From positions 45,090 to 109,089 of the forward strand of contig JAETQO010000003.1 in NCBI GenBank assembly GCA_021770655.1: a stretch of 64,000 bases of DNA. Reading direction: 5' to 3'. This stretch comes from Ruminococcus sp. Its GTDB lineage: Bacteria > Bacillota > Clostridia > Oscillospirales > Ruminococcaceae. Below the pieces are notes generated by a model. The model ran no database searches. It had not been told where the DNA came from and saw nothing but the letters and a program-made list of their open reading frames with translations. A program made the translations under genes and the position numbers. This document shows, in pieces, positions 7,758-19,434 of the stretch. The stretch's first letter is position 1; the number at the start of each line of letters is the position of its first letter.

Positions 7758-8003
7758 TTACAGCAATTCCTTTAAAGCTTTCGCTAATTGATCCGGGCAG
7801 GAAGTTCCTCTGCCGCCACAATCTATTCCTTCCAATTTTTGAATTGTGTCTTCAATTCTCATTCCTTGCACAAGCTGAGAAATTCCAATCGCATTGCCGG
7901 CGCAACCGCCTACGAATTTCACACTTTTTATAAATTCATTATTATCCACTTCAATATGTATTTCTCTGGAGCAAACACCTTTGGGTTTATAAATCACTTT
8001 CAT
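7758..8003 (-). CDS. TSCPD-domain protein (TIGR03905-like)
   Basis: VGGCAGNAIGISQLVQG…CGGRGTSCPDQLAKAL. Confidence 0.85.
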   Translation of the reverse strand: MKVIYKPKGVCSREIHIEVDNNEFIKSVKFVGGCAGNAIGISQLVQGMRIEDTIQKLEGIDCGGRGTSCPDQLAKALKELL

Positions 8004-8018
8004 ACCTTCTTTCTTATG

Positions 8019-9200
8019 TTACGACAATGTTTTATATAATATATTGCTTATAAATGATACTGCACCGTCTATTGCTTCAGGGTCAACTTTAAATTTCGGG
8101 TGATGCAGAGGATATCCTTTACCTGTACCGATCTTCAAATACAGCCCCTGTGCTTTTTCGTTAAGCTCTGTAAAGCTGCTGAAATCATCGCTAACCATCT
8201 CGGGTATAAAATTCACCGATTTCATACCTTCTTCTTTGGCGGAGTTTTCCGCCGTGTTGCAAAGTGAAGCCGAGTTTATTACAGCCGATGCACCTCTTAT
8301 CCACTGTAATTCGCATTCCGCTTCCGTTATATCCTTGAAACCTTGAACGATTCGATGAAAGGACTCTCTTATTGTCCGTCTGACCTCATCACTAAGCGTT
8401 CTAACTGTTCCTTCAAGATAGGCGGTATCCGGTATAATATTCCATGCTGTTCCGCCGTCAATATGTGTAAAACTAATAACAACTGGCTCTGACGGAGGTA
8501 TTTCTCTTCCGGCAAAATTTTGTAAATCAGACATCAATGAGGAGAGGGCGACTATGGGATTGTTTCCGAGATGCGGGGTTGCGGCATGAGTACCTATGCC
8601 TTTTACATCAATTCGGAATCGATCAACAGCTGCCATAACGCCGCCGACCTTGATGCCAGCCTCTCCGATCGACATTGCGGGGTCGGCATGAAATCCATAA
8701 AACTCCGATACATGCTTCAATACACCTGTGCCGAGAATGTGCTTTGCTCCGTCAAACGCTTCCTCACCCGGCTCAAATGCAATGTAAACAGTTCCACTAA
8801 ACTGGTTTTTTATTCTGTTCAGGCGAATTGCAACGCCCAAAGCAACAGTAGTATGAAAATCGTGTCCGCATGCATGCATGACATTCGTATTGCAGGAAGC
8901 ATAATCCAATCCGGTTTCCTCCTGAATCGGTAAAGCGTCTATATCTGCTCGCAGACATACAGTTTTCCCTTGCTTTTTTCCGTGTATTACAGCAATCAGT
9001 CCAGTTGATAAATTTGTTTCTACGATATCGATTCCGTTGATAACCAATATTTCCCGTATTTTTTTCGTTGTCTCAGTTTCCTTAAAGCCAAGCTCGGGAT
9101 TGGCATGAAACCATTTGAAAATCTCTGTCAAATTAAACTTATCCATAGAGCCTCCGTCTATTTTTATGCCGCACAATTCTATTTCGATTCCTGACGCCAT
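8019..9200 (-). CDS. M20 family metallo-amidohydrolase
   Basis: HANPELGFKE, RADIDALPIQEETG, HACGHDFHTT, EPGEEAFDGAK, HHPKFKVD. Confidence 0.9.
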   Translation of the reverse strand: MASGIEIELCGIKIDGGSMDKFNLTEIFKWFHANPELGFKETETTKKIREILVINGIDIVETNLSTGLIAVIHGKKQGKTVCLRADIDALPIQEETGLDYASCNTNVMHACGHDFHTTVALGVAIRLNRIKNQFSGTVYIAFEPGEEAFDGAKHILGTGVLKHVSEFYGFHADPAMSIGEAGIKVGGVMAAVDRFRIDVKGIGTHAATPHLGNNPIVALSSLMSDLQNFAGREIPPSEPVVISFTHIDGGTAWNIIPDTAYLEGTVRTLSDEVRRTIRESFHRIVQGFKDITEAECELQWIRGASAVINSASLCNTAENSAKEEGMKSVNFIPEMVSDDFSSFTELNEKAQGLYLKIGTGKGYPLHHPKFKVDPEAIDGAVSFISNILYKTLS

Positions 9201-10747
9201 TTTTCAAAACAATTTCTGCACCGTCGCCCGGAAGGAGTTTCACATAATCCGCCGACAGAAGTACATTTAAGCGAATCCGACATCTGTTTCCCCAGTTTAT
9301 CAGCCTCATCCACCACCTCATGAAAAGGAATAACTGCATTTCTGCCCGAAAGTGCAATATCTGAAAAAGTAATCGACATGACAATCGCAGTGATAAATCT
9401 GCTTAAGCACGGCTGATTATGACCGCCCGGTATGGGATCGCATGGCCATCCCAGTGCTGCTTGCAAAGTCAGGGAAGCCGCAGCTTCTACCTGTTCCGGC
9501 GTTCCGCCTACCATTTGAGCAATACCTGCTGCCGCCATCGCTCCGCATATGCCGCATTCACCTGCACAACCCAGCATTTCACCTGTAGGATTTGTTCTTG
9601 TATAGGCAATTGCCCCAACACCGGCAGCAACAAACAGACCGTCCAAAACTGATTCATCGTTGTACCCATATGCTTCTTTAACCGCACGCATAGCCGAAAA
9701 AAGAAAGCCGCCGCCCGTACCCATAGGACCGGGAATAAGAGGAATTCCTTTGATTAACGCCTGAACTCCAAAAGCATAATGTATCGCTTTGGCAATAATC
9801 GTACCTGCAATGGGAGTTTTGTTAGATTCGTAATTTCTCCAAGCCGCATAATGATATCCAGAATATGGAGTTTTTAAGATTTCACGATCATTCTCGTACA
9901 CTGCCTGCGTTTGCTTTTCCATAATCGTGCGGATCGTTTTCATGTATTCTATGATCTTGTTTTTCGTCCACCCCGACGCATTCTCTTCATATATGACGGC
10001 TACCTCGGACAGAGAGAGGTTTTCTTTCTTTGCGAAAGCTATCCATTCCTCGAATGTGGTAAACAACTGCTTCTTTCTTTTAGCAAAGGTCGGAACAGGC
10101 AGTATAGGATCAAGCTGGAATATAACCGATTCAAGCTGTTCTGATAGTTGCTCAAGGCGTCTTTCCGAGCGAATACAATATAGCTTTTCTCCATTTATCC
10201 CCAGAATAGATTCTACGCTCAATATGCCGTCGGCATTTTTACACAATTCCGGAACATCCACTTTTTCTGCAAAAACACAGGTGAGAAAAGAGTCTCCGAT
10301 AAAGCGATAAGGCACTCCCATAATCTGAACCGTTTCGACCATTCCTCCGCCCGTAGAATTTCCCATAAGTGTTACTATATGATCTTCCGTATCTGTCAGC
10401 ACAAATTTCACGGCATTGGGATGCGATCCTTTCGGGAAATCCACATGCTTAAACTTATAATCTATTCCTTCATCGGTCAAAATTTGCTTAATATCAAAAA
10501 TGCATTTGTCATCCGGGAATAGTCCGTATGCTCCGGCAAGCATCCCCAGGTCCTCGTTCATTAGCCCAAAAGTACCTGCAAAAGAGCCGTTTTTGTCAAG
10601 CTCTATTAAAATGTGCTTTAAAGGAGCTGTGAGGAGTCTATGAGCCATACAGCCGAGCCTGCACGGCCCAGCTGTATGGGAACTCGAACCCGGCTGCATA
10701 ACCGGACCGAATACATCATTGAAAAATTCGGGATAATATTCTACCAT
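9179..10747 (-). CDS. L-serine dehydratase-like protein, fused beta and alpha domains (Fe-S type)
   Basis: GSSSHTAGPCRLG (beta domain) and PGPMGTGGGFLFSAM…CAGECGICGAMAAAGI…GHNQPCLSRF (alpha domain). Confidence 0.82.
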   Translation of the reverse strand: MVEYYPEFFNDVFGPVMQPGSSSHTAGPCRLGCMAHRLLTAPLKHILIELDKNGSFAGTFGLMNEDLGMLAGAYGLFPDDKCIFDIKQILTDEGIDYKFKHVDFPKGSHPNAVKFVLTDTEDHIVTLMGNSTGGGMVETVQIMGVPYRFIGDSFLTCVFAEKVDVPELCKNADGILSVESILGINGEKLYCIRSERRLEQLSEQLESVIFQLDPILPVPTFAKRKKQLFTTFEEWIAFAKKENLSLSEVAVIYEENASGWTKNKIIEYMKTIRTIMEKQTQAVYENDREILKTPYSGYHYAAWRNYESNKTPIAGTIIAKAIHYAFGVQALIKGIPLIPGPMGTGGGFLFSAMRAVKEAYGYNDESVLDGLFVAAGVGAIAYTRTNPTGEMLGCAGECGICGAMAAAGIAQMVGGTPEQVEAAASLTLQAALGWPCDPIPGGHNQPCLSRFITAIVMSITFSDIALSGRNAVIPFHEVVDEADKLGKQMSDSLKCTSVGGLCETPSGRRCRNCFEKWRQESK

Positions 10748-10755
10748 TTTTACAC

Positions 10756-11280
10756 CTACTGTTTGGTGTACGCACGCAGATAATCGTCCAAATCAACCTG
10801 AAGTATTTTGTTAATAAGGTTAGTGGCAATCATAATTGTTGCAAAAGCCGTGATAGCAACAATCTGCTCTTCGTTCCAGCGACTCTTCATCTGCTCGAAA
10901 ATTTCGGTAGGAACATTATTGGCATCTTTAACGATAGCACGACCGTAGTCAATAAGGATTCGTTCCTCATCCGTAAAATCGAAGTTGTCAAAATCAATGT
11001 TCAGATCTTTCAAAATCTTTGCAAAAAATGTACCGCACAAAAGACAATCATTTTCTGTTGAAATTGCGTAGCAGAAAAAGTTTACTGCTCGCTCGCCCAG
11101 AAATGCCTCAATTGTTTCCTCAAGAGGGAACCACTCCATCAACGCATGAAAAGCGGGGAGAGAATGAAGCAGAGTAAGTTTCATATTTGTGATTCTGCCG
11201 TGGCTTTTAATTTGATTGTCAATCTCCGCTTTTACCGCATCGGATGCGTTTTCATATTTAACCTGTGAAATATATGCCAT
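10756..11280 (-). CDS. Carboxymuconolactone decarboxylase / AhpD-like protein
   Basis: CLLCGTFFAKIL CxxC motif and family layout. Confidence 0.7.
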   Translation of the reverse strand: MAYISQVKYENASDAVKAEIDNQIKSHGRITNMKLTLLHSLPAFHALMEWFPLEETIEAFLGERAVNFFCYAISTENDCLLCGTFFAKILKDLNIDFDNFDFTDEERILIDYGRAIVKDANNVPTEIFEQMKSRWNEEQIVAITAFATIMIATNLINKILQVDLDDYLRAYTKQ

Positions 11281-11313: not shown

Positions 11314-12066
11314 TTAAATCGTATAATTGAATCTTTGAAGATATCTGTCGAGAAACTGTTTTGCCCTGTCACTTTTGGGATTGGTAAAAAACTCGTTCGG
11401 AGGAGCGCTTTCTAAAATTTCTCCATCCGCCATAAAAGCGATCCTATCAGCGACATCGTGTGCAAAATCCATTTCATGTGTTACAATAAGCATTGTGACC
11501 TTTGCTTCAGACACTTGTTTTATAACACGCAAAACTTCCTGTACAAGTTCGGGATCCAGTGCGGAAGTCGGCTCGTCAAACAGTATGATTTTCGGGTCAA
11601 GAGCCAGAGCCCGTGCAATAGCAACGCGCTGCTTCTGTCCTCCGGACAATGTTCGAGGATAATTGTTTTTCTTGTTAGACAGTCCCACCTTTTCAAGATA
11701 TTGTTTTCCAATATCATCCGCCTCTTCGACAGATTTTTTCTGAACGACTTTCAAAGCCTCTGTTACGTTCTCCAAAACGGTCTTATTTTCAAACAATCCA
11801 AAGCCTTGGAATACCATAGCGGTGCGTTTTCTGGCCTCTCTTTTAATGCGACCGTTAATATCATGTGCATCAAAATAAAAGTCTCCGATCCGAACGGTTC
11901 CTTTGTCGGGTTTTTCCAAAAGATTGATGCAGCGAAGCAAAGTAGATTTTCCCGAACCGCTTGAACCAATCAATGCAACGGTCTGCCCCTCCTCAACGCT
12001 GAGATCAACTCCTTTCAAGACCTCTGTGCTACGAAAAGATTTATGTATTCCTTTAAGTTCGATCAT
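11314..12066 (-). CDS. Polar amino-acid ABC transporter ATPase
   Basis: Walker A GSSGSGKSTLLR, signature LSGGQKQRVAIARAL, Walker [14 protein letters not shown]. Confidence 0.95.
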   Translation of the reverse strand: MIELKGIHKSFRSTEVLKGVDLSVEEGQTVALIGSSGSGKSTLLRCINLLEKPDKGTVRIGDFYFDAHDINGRIKREARKRTAMVFQGFGLFENKTVLENVTEALKVVQKKSVEEADDIGKQYLEKVGLSNKKNNYPRTLSGGQKQRVAIARALALDPKIILFDEPTSALDPELVQEVLRVIKQVSEAKVTMLIVTHEMDFAHDVADRIAFMADGEILESAPPNEFFTNPKSDRAKQFLDRYLQRFNYTI

Positions 12067-12779
12067 TTTTTGCCTTCTTTCTCATCGCGGTTAGCTCTTT
12101 TTTCAATCACTGCAACAATTCGCTCAAAAATAATGCAAATCACCCAGTAGATCAGAGCTGCGACGATGTATGCTTCAAAAAATCTCGACGCACGACCGGC
12201 AACGATTTTTGCCTGACCCATAATCTCCGGAACTGCAGCTGTGAAAGCCAGCGATGTATCTTTCAGCAAGCCTATAAAAAAATTAGCAAAAACGGGAAGT
12301 CCAATCTTAATCGCCTGCGGCAGAATAATTCTTCTCATAGCCTGAAAAGTGGTCATTCCAACAGAATATGCCGCCTCAAGCTGTACCTTGTCAATAGCTA
12401 AAATGGAAGCGCGTATAGATTCTGTAAGGTAAGCGCCGGCGCTCATTGAAAAAGCTACTAACATAAATACAACTGCAGGTATCCATGATATATCAAATGC
12501 CGTTCCAAATTTTTGATTGATGATCCGTATAAAAATTGGCACTGCATAGTAGACCAGCATAATCTGAACGATCAAAGGCGTACCGCGTATAAACGACACA
12601 TAAACGCCTGTTATTTGCTTCAACACAGGAACATTGTAAATCTTACACATAGCTCCGATAAAGCCTATAACGATACCGATTAAAAATGCTACTACCGCAA
12701 TCAGAAGGGTATACGGGATACCCTTCAATATTTGCGGAATGCATTGGATCATAAAATCAAAATCAAATATTTTACCCAT
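12063..12779 (-). CDS. Polar amino-acid ABC transporter permease
   Basis: SFIRGTPLIVQIMLVYYAVP, EAAYSVGMTTFQAMRRIILPQA. Confidence 0.93.
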   Translation of the reverse strand: MGKIFDFDFMIQCIPQILKGIPYTLLIAVVAFLIGIVIGFIGAMCKIYNVPVLKQITGVYVSFIRGTPLIVQIMLVYYAVPIFIRIINQKFGTAFDISWIPAVVFMLVAFSMSAGAYLTESIRASILAIDKVQLEAAYSVGMTTFQAMRRIILPQAIKIGLPVFANFFIGLLKDTSLAFTAAVPEIMGQAKIVAGRASRFFEAYIVAALIYWVICIIFERIVAVIEKRANRDEKEGKK

Positions 12780-12782
12780 AAT

Positions 12783-14501
12783 TTATTTACCGCTCGGCGT
12801 ATAGTCAGCACCGAACCATTCGACTGACAGCTTTGACAATTCTCCGCTCTCAATCAGATTTTTAAGGGCCGCGTCAATCTTGTCACGAAGATCAGCTCCA
12901 ACTGTGTCCTGCTTAAAAATGAAGTAAACCGGTGTTTGTTCAAGCGCTTCACCAACAGCCTTAACATCCAGTCCCTGCAGCTTTGCTTTGCTTACGGCAA
13001 CAGCAGGGTCATTAAGAGTTGCATCGACACGTCCATTTACAATATCCTGAAGAATTGTGGTAACATCTTCGTTGTAATACTGGATAGTGAGAACATTACC
13101 GTGCTCTTCATTCCACTTTTCAGCTGCTTCGTTGTGTGCGTCTCCGACTGTAAGACCGATTGTTTTTCCAACGAGATCCTCAAATGAGGTTATATCATCT
13201 CTGTCACCTTTTACTATGATCTGATTAACTGCTGTATGGTAATCCTCGGCGTTTTCAAGACCAACGGAAATACGAAGCAGATTGCTTGGAATTCCTGCCA
13301 ATTTGTGCAACTCAGGTTCAAGCTCGGAATGCGTTGTTTCCGGAGGATTAGCAATCAGAGAACGTACATCGCCGATATTTACATGGTAAGAAAAAACCTC
13401 CAAAGCATCGATAAATTTTTTCAGCTGATCCCTCGTCCCGTTGAAACCAAAGGAAAAGACAGCTCCGGCTCCGTTGGGGAAGTATTTATCAGCAAGTTCT
13501 TTATAAGGATTCCCTTCCGCAGATGGATATTTCACCCATTCAACCTCTTTCCGGCTTTCAAGATATTTTACGAGTTTTTTGGTCGTAGCAACCTCTTTGT
13601 CAAGTCTTTCGACAATTGTGCTTAGTCCTTGAATCGCAAGATATGCGTCAAATGCGCTGAGCGTTGCTCCGATAAATTCAAGATAGAATATTCTGAGAGC
13701 GGCTATTACGGGAAAATCGGGAGCAAATTCCAATGGTGTGCGTGGATTTCCGTTCAAATCGCGCATTTTGTATGATTTCTCATACAGTTGCGCGAAACGC
13801 TTCTTGTCATATTCGAAATCTCCTTTTTCTACCACAATACCGGCAATCACATTGCCGTGACCAGTTAGTCCTTTTGTAGCAGAATAAACGATAATATCCG
13901 CACCGTGTTCAAACGGTCTGAAAAGATATGGAGTGGCAATCGTATTGTCAACCACCAGTGGAATACCGTGACGGTGTGCTATTTCTGCTATCGCTTCAAA
14001 ATCATAGATTTCAATATTCGGATTGCTGATCGTTTCCAAGTAAATTGCCCGGGTGTTGTCATCGATCAGAGACTCATACTCATTGATATCATCTCTGTTT
14101 TTGACAAACTTTGTTTTTACACCAAACTTCGGCAAAAAATGTGTGAGCGTTTCCTGTGCCGCCCCATAGAGCGAAGATGAGGAAACGATGTTTCCGCCTC
14201 CCTCGGCAAGCAGAAGGATTGTATATGTAATTGCCGCCATTCCGGAAGACAAGGCAATCGCAGCGGATCCTCCGTCCAGATCACAGACTCTTTCCTCCAG
14301 TATGCTTGCTGTAGGATTCCCTACACGAGAATAAATCCCTCCGGTTTCTGCGCCCGTCCATAACCTTCTTGCTCTGTCAATATCCTCAAGGTCAAATGCC
14401 GCTGTTTGATATATAGGAACATTTACTGAGTTGAAATGCTCCGACGAATTGTATCCCGCATGGATACGGTTTGTCTCAAATTGATGCTTTTTATTACTCA
14501 C
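12783..14501 (-). CDS. Chimera: O-acetylhomoserine sulfhydrylase/Cys-Met metabolism PLP enzyme fused to the C-terminal part of an SBP_bac_3 solute-binding protein
   Basis: Residues ~1-420: YSRVGNPTASILEERV, SATKGLTGHGNVIAG, LLRISVGLENAED. After ~420: VNQIIVKGDRDDITSFEDLVGKTIGLTVGD…VNGRVDATLNDPAVAV…LIESGELSKLSVEWFG (SBP-type). Confidence 0.88.
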   Translation of the reverse strand: MSNKKHQFETNRIHAGYNSSEHFNSVNVPIYQTAAFDLEDIDRARRLWTGAETGGIYSRVGNPTASILEERVCDLDGGSAAIALSSGMAAITYTILLLAEGGGNIVSSSSLYGAAQETLTHFLPKFGVKTKFVKNRDDINEYESLIDDNTRAIYLETISNPNIEIYDFEAIAEIAHRHGIPLVVDNTIATPYLFRPFEHGADIIVYSATKGLTGHGNVIAGIVVEKGDFEYDKKRFAQLYEKSYKMRDLNGNPRTPLEFAPDFPVIAALRIFYLEFIGATLSAFDAYLAIQGLSTIVERLDKEVATTKKLVKYLESRKEVEWVKYPSAEGNPYKELADKYFPNGAGAVFSFGFNGTRDQLKKFIDALEVFSYHVNIGDVRSLIANPPETTHSELEPELHKLAGIPSNLLRISVGLENAEDYHTAVNQIIVKGDRDDITSFEDLVGKTIGLTVGDAHNEAAEKWNEEHGNVLTIQYYNEDVTTILQDIVNGRVDATLNDPAVAVSKAKLQGLDVKAVGEALEQTPVYFIFKQDTVGADLRDKIDAALKNLIESGELSKLSVEWFGADYTPSGK

Positions 14502-14536: not shown

Positions 14537-14569
14537 AAAAAAACAGGAAGTCATTTTTCATTGACTTCC
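14537..14569 (-). terminator. Intrinsic terminator in the operon leader (attenuator)
   Basis: Minus strand GGAAGTCA-ATGAAAAA-TGACTTCC-TG-TTTTTTT, ~36 nt before the first CDS start. Confidence 0.75.
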
Positions 14570-14615: not shown

Positions 14616-14669
14616 TCACATTTGAGGCACACAACATCGAATGATATAGCAGTCTTTGTACGGCATCAT
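14616..14669 (-). CDS. Leader ORF 2, Cys-rich (MMPYKDCYIIRCCVPQM)
   Basis: ATG overlaps the stop of leader ORF 1 (TGATG); three Cys codons including a tandem TGT TGT. Confidence 0.5.
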   Translation of the reverse strand: MMPYKDCYIIRCCVPQM

Positions 14670-14710
14670 ACACATACACTGGTTGTTTTTTCACATTTGA
14701 TAGTTGTCAT
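14666..14710 (-). CDS. Leader ORF 1 (MTTIKCEKTTSVCV)
   Basis: AAAAGGAGG RBS 9 nt upstream of ATG; two Cys codons. Confidence 0.55.
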   Translation of the reverse strand: MTTIKCEKTTSVCV

Positions 14711-14819: not shown

Positions 14820-14849
14820 AAAAACGCCCCTGCATCTTACGCAGGAGCG
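14820..14849 (-). terminator. Terminator of the LysR gene
   Basis: Minus strand GCGCTCCTGC…GCAGGGGCGTTTTT overlapping the LysR stop. Confidence 0.6.
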
Positions 14850-15784
14850 CCGTCTGATTTCATTAGATTTTGCAAATATTTTTTCGTTTCTTCAATATAC
14901 AAGCTTCCCATGTTGCTTAACATCTGATTCTTTTTTACAATATACCCGATCTGCATATGGCCGTTTTCACTGCTATTATCTATATTGTCTAATGGTACCG
15001 CTATATAATCACTGCCGTTTAATTCCTCACAAATGATGCCTGAACACAGAGTATATCCATTCAATCCAACCATCAAGTTCAGCATGGTAGCACGATCATT
15101 TGCCTTGATCGTTCTCGGATATTCATTCGTGCTGAAGATTTCCTCTGCGAAATAAAATGAGCTGCTTTCTCCCTGTTCAAATGACAGACAGGGGTATTCA
15201 TACAACTGCTCTATCTTTACAGAACTTTCATTTGCCAGTGGATGTCCTTGCCACAGATATGCGTAAACACGACAGTCAATAAGTTTATGGAATTCAAGTC
15301 CATGAGCTTTCAAAAGCTTTGATATTGCCGCCTGATTAAAATTGCTCAGATACAAAATGCCGATCTCACTTTTCAGTGTGCTGACATCTTCTATCACTTC
15401 TTTTGTTTTCGTTTCGCGGATGGCAAACTCATATTCTTCCGTATCAAACTGCTTTACCATCTCGACAAAGCTTTTAACAACAAAGGAATAATGCTGAGTA
15501 GATACACCAAATTTTTTCTTTCGTTTGCCGGAATTCCCATATTTATCAAGGAGGGTTTCATACTGAGAATATACCTGTCTTGCATATGTTAAAAACTCAA
15601 CACCGTCATTTGTCAGCGTAACGCCGCGACCGCTTCGATGAAAAATCGTGATGCCGAGTTCATTCTCTAAATCATGTATCGCGCCGCTGAGGGACGGCTG
15701 TGCTACATATAAGATTTCCGCTGCCTTATTCATTGAACCGGTTTCGGAAATTGTAATAGCATAATAAATTTGCTGTAAAGTCAT
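14837..15784 (-). CDS. LysR family transcriptional regulator
   Basis: MTLQQIYYAITISETGSMNKAAEILYVAQPSLSGAIHDLENELGITIFHRSGRGVTLT. Confidence 0.93.
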   Translation of the reverse strand: MTLQQIYYAITISETGSMNKAAEILYVAQPSLSGAIHDLENELGITIFHRSGRGVTLTNDGVEFLTYARQVYSQYETLLDKYGNSGKRKKKFGVSTQHYSFVVKSFVEMVKQFDTEEYEFAIRETKTKEVIEDVSTLKSEIGILYLSNFNQAAISKLLKAHGLEFHKLIDCRVYAYLWQGHPLANESSVKIEQLYEYPCLSFEQGESSSFYFAEEIFSTNEYPRTIKANDRATMLNLMVGLNGYTLCSGIICEELNGSDYIAVPLDNIDNSSENGHMQIGYIVKKNQMLSNMGSLYIEETKKYLQNLMKSDGAPA

Positions 15785-16002
15785 CGTAAATTACCGCCTT
15801 AGTATCTAAATATACATACAATCTTGTATTTGCTTTATAACTTATAAAACCTATGTATATAATATATTATACAAAAAAATTAAGCCTTTGTCAAGATACA
15901 CTGCGCATCTGCTGGTATTAACAAACAAATTTTTGTTGTGCCTCTTGAAAACCTACTAAATATATGTTATTATAGAGTTATCGTAATAATGAGGTGAATC
16001 AA

Positions 16003-16440
16003 ATGAAAATTTCTACAAAAGGCCGCTACGCGCTTCGTATGCTGCTGGATTTAGCCGAGCATCAAAATTGTGGTTTTATTGCTCTGAAGGATATTGCAGA
16101 GCGTCAAAATATATCAAAGAAATATCTTGAGCAGATCATTCCTATTTTTAATAGATCAGGTATTTTGAAAACAATCCGTGGGTCACAAGGGGGTTATCAG
16201 CTTGCAAAAACGCCTGATAAGTATACTGTAGGTGAAATACTCCGCTTGACAGAAGGCTCGTTATCTCCCATTTCATGCGTGGAAGAGGAATCCACCACAT
16301 GCGAGCGAAGCGGTGATTGCGCTATGCTTCCGGTGTGGCAGGGGCTTTATAAGGTGATTATCGAGTATCTTGACGGAATTACTTTGCAGGATATAATGGA
16401 GCAACAAAGAGAACGGTATATGAATGATTATGTGATTTAA
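16003..16440 (+). CDS. Rrf2 family regulator (IscR/CymR-like) with three C-terminal Cys
   Basis: MKISTKGRYALRMLLDLA…KKYLEQIIPIF…GSQGGYQLA…SCVEEESTTCERSGDC; ATG at 16003 follows a GAGGTG RBS. Confidence 0.9.
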   Translation: MKISTKGRYALRMLLDLAEHQNCGFIALKDIAERQNISKKYLEQIIPIFNRSGILKTIRGSQGGYQLAKTPDKYTVGEILRLTEGSLSPISCVEEESTTCERSGDCAMLPVWQGLYKVIIEYLDGITLQDIMEQQRERYMNDYVI

Positions 16441-16460
16441 AGCATTTTTTCGATAAATGA

Positions 16461-16503
16461 AGGATCCGGTTCGAAGCACAAAAGCTCTCAGAACCGGATC
16501 CTT
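16461..16503. terminator. Bidirectional terminator between the Rrf2 and cysK genes
   Basis: AGGATCCGGTTC…GAACCGGATCCTTTT. Confidence 0.8.
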
Positions 16504-16521
16504 TTATAATATTCACATTTT

Positions 16522-17451
16522 TTATTCAGCAAACATCGGAGTAGACAAATAACGCTCACCGGTATCGGGAAGAAGTGCGACAATGACTTTTCCCTTATTC
16601 TCCGGACGCTTTGCGAGTTCTGTCGCGGCAAATACTGCAGCTCCGGAAGAAATTCCTACAAGCAATCCTTCCCGCCTTGCAAGTGTTCTTCCTGTTTCAA
16701 AGGCATCCTCGTTTTCTACGGTGATGATCTCATCGTAAATTTCGGTATTCAGAGTCTCCGGAACAAAGCCTGCTCCGATGCCCTGAATCTTATGCGGACC
16801 CGGAGTACCCTTAGATAGTACCGGAGAGCCGGCAGGCTCAACTGCGACTATCTTCACGTTCGGATTCTTGCTCTTGAGATATTCGCCGACGCCGGAAACT
16901 GTGCCGCCAGTTCCTACACCTGCAACAAAGATATCCACCTTGCCATCGGTATCTTCCCAAATCTCGGGACCGGTTGTACTGCGATGTGCTGCGGGATTTG
17001 CCGTATTGGTGAACTGACTGGGAATGAAGCTGTTCGGCGTTTCAGCTGCAAGCTCCTGTGCCTTTGCGATAGCACCCTTCATCCCCTTAGCGCCTTCGGT
17101 AAGGACAAGCTGTGCGCCGTAAGCCTTCAAAAGATTGCGGCGTTCAATGCTCATTGTTTCCGGCATGGTGAGTATAATCTTGTAACCTCTTGAAGCAGCT
17201 ACAGCCGCAAGGCCGATTCCGGTATTTCCGCTGGTCGGTTCAATAATTACGGAATCAGGTTTTAAAGCGCCTTTTGCTTCAGCTTCGTCGATCATCGCCT
17301 TTGCAATTCTGTCCTTAACACTTCCTGCGGGGTTGAAATATTCCAGCTTACCATAAATTGTAGCGCCGAGTTCTTTCTCAGCAATATAGTTAGTAAGCTT
17401 CAAAAGCGGCGTACCGCCGATCAAATCTGTAATCTTATCAAATGTTTTCAT
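16522..17451 (-). CDS. cysK: Cysteine synthase A
   Basis: [50 protein letters not shown]. Confidence 0.95.
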
Positions 17452-17494
17452 GATGATTTCTCCTTAACGATTAAATAATAATTATGAAAATATG

Positions 17495-17533
17495 CTATGC
17501 TTTCCACGGCCTACATCGTTTTATTTTATACAT
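17495..17533 (-). CDS. Candidate cysK leader peptide (MYKIKRCRPWKA)
   Basis: AAAGGGAG upstream; 12 codons ending ~44 nt before the cysK start. Confidence 0.25.
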   Translation of the reverse strand: MYKIKRCRPWKA

Positions 17534-17680
17534 ATCTGAAAGTCTCCCTTTTGAATTACCTATTATTCTTATCGGTTTTATGTGTTTGATAATACCACTG
17601 CAATTATCACTTGTCAAGGCTTTTTTCAAAAAAAGCTTGAAAATTAACAAAAAGTTGAGAATCACATATTCTTTCACCTC

Positions 17681-17709
17681 TTGACAAACCATAAATGTGA
17701 GACTATAAT
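17681..17709 (+). promoter_or_regulatory. Consensus promoter of the nifS operon
   Basis: TTGACA (17681-17686), 17 nt, TATAAT (17704-17709). Confidence 0.75.
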
Positions 17710-17764
17710 ATAACATATTAAATAGATAGGTATTATATGCTTAATTCGCAGAAATCGATAATAT

Positions 17765-17795
17765 TCGGAGCTGCTTTTCTGTAGCTCCGATTTTT
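17765..17795 (+). terminator. Intrinsic terminator in the nifS leader
   Basis: TCGGAGCT…AGCTCCGA + TTTTT, ending 21 nt before the nifS start. Confidence 0.6.
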
Positions 17796-17816
17796 AACAA
17801 GTAGGGAGGAAGATAA

Positions 17817-19007
17817 ATGAACATATATGCAGACAACGCCGCAACAACCAAAATGAGCAAAGCTGCGATAGAAGCGATGCTTCCGTATTTCGATCAAATA
17901 TACGGAAACCCATCCAGTCTGCACAGCACAGGACAATATGCGGCTGAGGCGCTGTTCATGGCAAGAAAAATTATCGCTGAGATATTGGGGTGTGATGCAA
18001 GAGAAATCACTTTCACTTCCGGCGGCAGTGAGGCGGACAATCAGGCGATCGTTTCCGCGGCGTCCATTGGTGCGAAGAAGGGAAAAAAGCACATTATTTC
18101 AAGTGCTATCGAGCATCATGCGGTACTGCACACGCTGGAAAAGCTGAAAAAACAGGGCTTTGAGATCACACTGTTGGATGCGCACGAAAACGGAATCGTT
18201 CGTCCGGAAGAGTTGGCGGCAGCAATTCGCCCGGATACCGCACTTGTGACGATCATGTACGCCAACAACGAGATCGGCTCAATCCAACCGATTGCAGAAC
18301 TCGGAAAAATCTGTCGTGAGAAAGGCGTAATATTCCATACCGATGCGGTACAGGCAGTCGGTCATGTAAAAATCAATGTGGTCGAGGATAATATCGATAT
18401 GCTATCGCTGTCCGCTCACAAATTTCACGGACCAAAAGGAATCGGCGTCCTGTATGCGAAGAAAGGGATCCCGCTTACTAATTTAATTGAGGGCGGCGCA
18501 CAGGAGCGCGGCAAACGCGCCGGCACGGAGAATCTTCCGGCGATTATGGGTATGGCGGCTGCGCTGAAGGAGGCTGTTTCTGATATCGATGAAAACACCG
18601 CAAAGCTGATTCCGTTGCGCGACAGACTGATTGAAGGGCTGCTTCAAATTCCTCATACTGTTCTTAATGGCGATCCGAAACTTCGTCTCCCGGGCAATGC
18701 CAATGTCTGCTTTGAGGGAATCGAGGGTGAATCCCTGCTCCTTCTGCTTGACAGCAAGGGAATCTGCGCTTCCTCCGGTTCTGCCTGCACCTCCGATTCG
18801 CTGGACCCGAGCCATGTTCTGCTGGCAATCGGCCGTCCGCACGAGGTTGCACACGGATCGCTCCGACTATCGCTGTCGGAAGAAAACACAATAGAAGAAA
18901 TCGACTATATGATTGAGGCAATCAAAGAAGTGGTCGCTTATCTGAGGAACATGTCTCCGGTTTGGAGAGATTTACAGGAGGGTAAAAGAAGCTATGTTAT
19001 ACAGTGA
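17817..19007 (+). CDS. nifS: Cysteine desulfurase (NifS/IscS type)
   Basis: [46 protein letters not shown]. Confidence 0.95.
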
Positions 19008-19434
19008 GAAAGTGATGGATCATTTTACAAATCCGCGCAATGTGGGCGTGATCGAAAATGCGGACGGGGTCGGCGAGGTTGGCAACGCCAAATGCGGTGA
19101 TATTATGAAGATTTATTTGAAGATTGAGAACGACATCATAGCGGATGTTAAGTTTGAAACCTTCGGCTGTGGAAGCGCTATCGCATCCAGTTCCATGGCG
19201 ACCGAGATGATCAAGGGCAAGCCGCTCTCCGAAGCACTCACGCTTACCAATAAGGCGGTCGCAGAGGCGCTGGACGGCCTTCCTGCACACAAGCTGCACT
19301 GTTCAGTACTCGCGGAGGAAGCGGTAAAAGCTGCTGTCAAAGACTATTACGATAAAAACGGCATCGAATACGATCATGCAATTTTCCCGGACTGTGCTTC
19401 CTGCGGACACTGCGAGACCGGGGAATGCCACTGA
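18994..19434 (+). CDS. nifU: Fe-S cluster assembly scaffold (NifU-N/IscU-like)
   Basis: [64 protein letters not shown]. Confidence 0.93.

What the first reader, a model, noticed from the sequence alone, without database searches (positions are those of the whole stretch)
12783..14501. In-frame chimera of a cytosolic PLP sulfhydrylase with the C-terminal part of an extracellular solute-binding protein
Seen: one uninterrupted 572-aa ORF. Residues ~1-420 are a complete O-acetylhomoserine sulfhydrylase-type enzyme ending in the usual RISVGLEN(A)ED. The next residues read YHTAVNQIIVKGDRDDITSFEDLVGKTIGL…, the interior of an SBP_bac_3 binding protein. Its signal peptide/lipobox and first half-lobe are missing. 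The matching permease and ATPase follow immediately, and no other SBP is in the operon. Inference: a deletion between adjacent sulfhydrylase and SBP genes (junction near 13230-13245), leaving the transporter without its receptor, or a functional fusion acting as a cytosolic ligand sensor.
Basis: partly seen in the sequence, partly recalled or inferred. Interest (0 to 1): 0.75.

Follow-up and report, generated by a model that had tools for sequence, protein, structure and literature searches.

The report
Deletion-made enzyme and receptor fusion gene
In one draft bacterial genome a roughly 1.3-kb deletion has apparently joined a sulfur-amino-acid enzyme gene in frame to the back half of a cystine-type uptake receptor gene, removing the receptor's export signal and front lobe and probably a reductase gene between them; it looks like a recent one-off mutation, not a designed sensor.

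Summary
One open 572-aa ORF (window 12783-14501, minus) is a MetY-type O-acetylhomoserine sulfhydrylase up to residue 420, followed (421-572) by the back half of an SBP_bac_3 receptor. In every relative found the two parts are separate genes. Relatives' sulfhydrylases end 14-18 aa after the junction point; their SBPs start 112-163 aa before it. Where flanks are readable the sulfhydrylase gene is usually followed by a short-chain dehydrogenase (SDR) gene, and in Kineothrix the SDR is directly followed by SBP, permease, ATPase and CMD genes. The window has that order minus the SDR and the SBP front half, so one in-frame deletion of about 1.2-1.4 kb is the simplest explanation. No other genome searched carries the fusion, and its own assembly holds no close SBP or SDR homologue. 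The SBP part shows no excess substitutions: the deletion is recent or the part is still constrained. Most likely the enzyme still works, the receptor half is inert cytosolic baggage, and the permease and ATPase, which resemble cystine importers, have lost their cognate receptor. A selected sensor fusion is not excluded but unsupported; reads could not be checked. Low to moderate interest.

The parts
13242..14501 (-). Sulfhydrylase part, residues 1-420 (MetY/OAH-OAS sulfhydrylase type); PLP lysine in SATKG present; last 14-18 aa of the normal enzyme missing
13241..13242 (-). Fusion junction GAG GAT | TAC CAT; no repeat beyond about 1 bp can be inferred from relatives
12783..13241 (-). C-terminal part of an SBP_bac_3 receptor, residues 421-572 plus stop; signal peptide, lipobox and N-terminal lobe segment absent
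12063..12779 (-). Permease, best NCBIfam match the cystine permease model (below cut-off); begins 3 nt after the fusion's stop codon
11314..12066 (-). ABC ATPase, best NCBIfam match TcyN (below cut-off)
10756..11280 (-). CMD/AhpD-like protein (name inferred; weak YciW-related match), 71-82% identical to relatives' copies
9179..10747 (-). Serine-dehydratase-like (alpha plus beta-like) protein, conserved with the transporter in relatives
8019..9200 (-). M20 amidohydrolase/deacetylase
7758..8003 (-). TSCPD-domain protein, end of the gene run
14837..15784 (-). LysR-type regulator upstream; a LysR gene also follows the gene set in L041
14546..14569 (-). Terminator-like hairpin (8-bp stem, T run) between leader and fusion gene

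Best explanation
A single in-frame deletion of about 1.2-1.4 kb in an ancestral operon of the order sulfhydrylase - SDR - SBP - permease - ATPase - CMD removed the last 14-18 codons of the sulfhydrylase gene, the whole SDR gene, and the signal peptide and N-terminal lobe segment of the SBP. The product is a cytosolic protein: a sulfhydrylase core, probably still active, with the second lobe and C-terminal segment of a formerly exported receptor trailing behind. The receptor part cannot be exported or form a two-lobed binding site, so the transporter has lost its cognate receptor and is idle or depends on a foreign SBP. Keeping the frame preserves translation up to the permease start, 3 nt after the stop. 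Shown: the ORF, the junction, separate parent genes in relatives, absence of a close SDR and full SBP in this assembly, lack of decay. Inferred: the deletion as the route, enzyme activity, an inert tail, loss of transport.
For: Separate genes in relatives: sulfhydrylase alone in L036-L041 and L007; full-length SBP in L037, L041, L042, L043, L083. Sulfhydrylase is directly followed by SDR in L036, L037, L039, L040 and L041, and SDR directly by SBP-permease-ATPase in L042, L043 and L083; the window has SBP'-permease-ATPase-CMD in the L042/L043 order. No other SBP of this family (best 27% over most of the protein) and no SDR above 35% identity in the assembly. No second genome with the fusion among 29 of the genus, 398 of the family, 392 of the class, and 397 of the family of L037's genome. 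Fused SBP part evolves no faster than intact ones (window branch 0.12 against 0.17-0.18 for L041; 5 of 94 otherwise invariant sites changed against 9 of 98 in L041 and 6 of 95 in L037). Sulfhydrylase part keeps 84 of 85 invariant positions.
Against: No relative with the exact inferred ancestral order (sulfhydrylase-SDR-SBP in one run) was found; it is pieced together from two groups, and L037, L038 and L041 have other orders. Only one assembly carries the fusion and no reads could be checked. The preserved SBP tail is equally compatible with recent origin and with selection.
Confidence: 0.75

Rival explanations
1. The fusion is kept by selection: the SBP second lobe acts in the cytosol as a regulatory or scaffolding domain on the sulfhydrylase, for example sensing a cystine-like ligand or tethering the enzyme to the transporter.
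For: In frame, no stops; the tail shows no accelerated change; the cut falls just before the conserved YHTAVNQ stretch, which by general knowledge of this fold is near the start of the crossover into lobe two, so that lobe could fold by itself.
Against: Only one genome has it; the N-terminal lobe segment is gone, including the conserved TDERR stretch before the hinge that should hold the ligand-carboxylate arginine of this SBP class (identification from memory, not tested); the same event also removed the neighbouring SDR, as expected of a blunt deletion.
Confidence: 0.08
2. Assembly or strain-mixture artefact: the chimera exists only in the assembly, or only in a minor strain of the sampled population.
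For: Draft genome of 92 contigs; no read data; no other copy known.
Against: No long shared repeat at the junction, judged from relatives, so a k-mer collapse has nothing to act on; exact reading frame kept; no leftover intact SBP or close SDR elsewhere in the assembly.
Confidence: 0.13
3. A variant of the best explanation: the deletion is real, but the transporter is still fed by another, unlinked SBP, so uptake is intact and only the cognate receptor was dispensable.
For: The assembly has at least two other SBP_bac_3-type receptors, on C10 (L075) and C16 (L076).
Against: Both are weak matches (27%, and 32% over a part); the C16 one has its own permease next to it; the C10 one lies at a contig end.
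Confidence: 0.2

Closest known systems
MetY-type O-acetylhomoserine/O-acetylserine sulfhydrylase (TIGR01326; PDB 8sf5, 7kb0)
   Same: Residues 1-420 match over nearly the whole fold; PLP lysine and 84 of 85 invariant positions kept
   Different: C-terminal end replaced and 152 aa of receptor appended; scores below the TIGR01326 cut-off, but so does the unfused relative L036
Cystine-type ABC importer TcyKLMN / YtmK of the ytmI operon (Lmo2349 4gvo, YtmK 2o1m; PMC9239247)
   Same: Relatives' SBP is closest by sequence to these solved receptors; permease and ATPase are closest to cystine permease and TcyN models; LysR regulator nearby
   Different: Other gene content than the ytmI operon; one permease gene here; substrate untested; the receptor in the window is truncated and cytosolic
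Gene fusions made by deletion between genes of one operon
   Same: In-frame joining of two co-directional genes with loss of the DNA between them (general knowledge)
   Different: Joins a cytosolic enzyme to the interior of an exported receptor

Membership tests
O-acetylhomoserine/O-acetylserine sulfhydrylase (MetY, TIGR01326) | Near full-length Cys/Met PLP fold with catalytic lysine | tested here: met
   Pfam PF01053 9-422; TIGR01326 covers 1-414 of 418 model positions; SATKG with K210
O-acetylhomoserine/O-acetylserine sulfhydrylase (MetY, TIGR01326) | NCBIfam curated score cut-off | tested here: not met
   445.6 bits against 495.1; the unfused relative L036 also misses it at 447.0, so this is a divergent subgroup rather than an effect of the fusion
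O-acetylhomoserine/O-acetylserine sulfhydrylase (MetY, TIGR01326) | Sulfhydrylase activity | not testable with these tools
   Needs enzyme assay
Extracellular solute-binding protein family 3 (SBP_bac_3) | Two-lobed receptor with both N- and C-terminal parts | tested here: not met
   Only the C-terminal part is present; 112-163 N-terminal aa of relatives missing
Extracellular solute-binding protein family 3 (SBP_bac_3) | Signal peptide or lipoprotein signal for export | tested here: not met
   Translation begins with the sulfhydrylase; relatives L037, L042, L043 have a hydrophobic start with a GC lipobox-like site, by eye
Cystine-type ABC importer | Permease and ATPase of that subfamily | tested here: inconclusive
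   Best NCBIfam models are cystine permease (198 bits, cut-off 300) and TcyN (309 bits, cut-off 406), both below cut-off

The most novel reading that the evidence does not exclude
A selected fusion in which the second lobe of a former uptake receptor, now cytosolic, regulates a sulfhydrylase or tethers it to its own transporter.
Probability: 0.06. Interest if true: 0.7.

Novelty: new member of a known kind. Interest (0 to 1): 0.28.

Why it matters
It is a clear, probably young example of a deletion fusing a cytosolic enzyme to the interior of an exported receptor, with the lost pieces identifiable from relatives. If real in the population, it gives a natural test of whether a cystine-type importer can run without its own receptor and of how long such chimeras last. 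As a sensor or a new system it has no support, so the main value is as an annotation warning and a small evolutionary case.

Tried and rejected
Fusion as a normal feature of the enzyme family: rejected, relatives and listed plasmid hits end at the usual point; one plasmid record with at least 80% of the query covered was not among the 60 listed and was not identified. Structure prediction of the fusion places residues 418-433 as a helix, as if the receptor's hinge stretch replaced the enzyme's C-terminal helix, but in alignment A3 the SBP rows were misplaced, so the tail model is worthless; a control model of an intact SBP from five sequences was also poor (mean pLDDT 44). Fold search only confirmed the MetY fold. 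SAM-II riboswitch hit inside the coding sequence: 27.9 bits against a gathering score of 44, chance. A junction-pattern scan of viral contigs failed twice for technical reasons. Literature searches for a published fusion of this kind gave nothing relevant.

Full report
What is there. The minus-strand ORF 12783-14501 is open for 572 codons from a GTG start. Residues 9-422 match the Cys/Met PLP enzyme family (E 4e-112); the nearest solved proteins are MetY-type sulfhydrylases such as 8sf5 and 7kb0. Residues 421-572 match receptors of family SBP_bac_3 and are 70-76% identical to the C-terminal halves of full-length receptors of relatives. The receptor relatives are closest among solved structures to Lmo2349 and B. 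subtilis YtmK.

What relatives look like. A scan of one genome per species brought in six loci by the sulfhydrylase part and two by the SBP part. L036: sulfhydrylase (438 aa) overlapping the start of an SDR gene, then CMD. L037: sulfhydrylase, SDR, CMD, SBP, permease, ATPase, M20. L041: SBP, permease, ATPase, SDH-like, sulfhydrylase, SDR, CMD, LysR. L039 and L040: sulfhydrylase, SDR. L038: sulfhydrylase followed by a nitrogenase-like gene, no SDR. Kineothrix alysoides L042, L043 and a third genome L083: SDR, SBP, permease, ATPase, followed in L042 and L043 by CMD, M20 and SDH-like. L007, from the same genus as the window, has a 60% identical sulfhydrylase with a normal end and no SBP next to it. 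So the two parts of the fusion belong to one recurring gene set but are always separate genes; the SDR usually follows the sulfhydrylase and, in the Kineothrix group, precedes the SBP.

What was lost. The window has fusion, permease, ATPase, CMD, SDH-like, M20, TSCPD. It lacks the SDR and the first 112-163 residues of the SBP, and the sulfhydrylase lacks its last 14-18 residues. Adding these lengths from relatives gives about 1.2-1.4 kb. The assembly has no SDR above 35% identity and no second SBP of this family; the best others are 27% over most of the protein and 32% over a part. Junction DNA reads GAG GAT | TAC CAT; relatives suggest no more than about one shared base.

Is it chance, decay or selection? 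An in-frame join of two co-directional genes is expected in one of three random deletions, so the frame by itself proves little. The frame may have been kept because the permease starts 3 nt after the fusion's stop, as it starts 2 nt after the SBP stop in L042, so translation into the permease would suffer otherwise (inference). The SBP part shows no sign of decay: triplet branch length about 0.12 against 0.17-0.18 for L041, and 5 of 94 otherwise invariant sites changed against 9 of 98 in L041 and 6 of 95 in L037. The sulfhydrylase part keeps 84 of 85 invariant sites. This fits a recent event or continued constraint and cannot tell them apart.

How widespread. Only the window's own genome carries it among 29 genomes of the genus, 398 of the family, 392 of the class at a strict threshold, 397 of the family of L037's genome and three further genera.

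How it most likely works. The sulfhydrylase core has its conserved positions and should still fold and act; in the predicted model residues 418-433 form a helix where the enzyme's own C-terminal helix would be, but confidence there is modest. The receptor part has no export signal and no N-terminal lobe segment, so it cannot serve the transporter. The permease and ATPase are closest to cystine importers (ytmI-operon background in PMC9239247) and are probably without their receptor. A regulatory role of the tail is possible but nothing found here supports it.

Limits. No reads, one assembly, no genome with the full inferred ancestral order, and no usable structural model of the tail because the receptor rows were misplaced in the alignment used.

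Noticed in passing
window 14616-14710 and 14546-14569, minus strand: Upstream of the fusion gene: short ORF MTTIKCEKTTSVCV with a good ribosome-binding site (14710-14666), an overlapping Cys-rich frame MCMMPYKDCYIIRCCVPQM (14675-14616), then a terminator-like hairpin. L036 has MSAIQLSLCRCFT in the same place. Possible cysteine-responsive leader-peptide attenuator; no Rfam family matches.
   Followed up: partly
L038:6430-7095: Next to a sulfhydrylase relative in a rumen Lachnospiraceae MAG there is a nitrogenase-like protein and, upstream, an NMT1-type SBP, permease and ATPase: possibly a nitrogenase-like sulfur salvage cluster (recognised by eye).
   Followed up: no
window 15994-19434: An Rrf2 regulator, a PALP-family enzyme (cysteine-synthase-like), a cysteine-desulfurase-like and an IscU-like gene (the last two by eye) lie beside the operon, so the whole region looks like a cysteine/sulfur regulon.
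   Followed up: no
L036:1837-2643: The SDR that is missing in the window scores 295.4 bits in this relative, just under the cut-off of 300 for mycofactocin-coupled SDRs (TIGR03971), unexpected for these bacteria.
   Followed up: no
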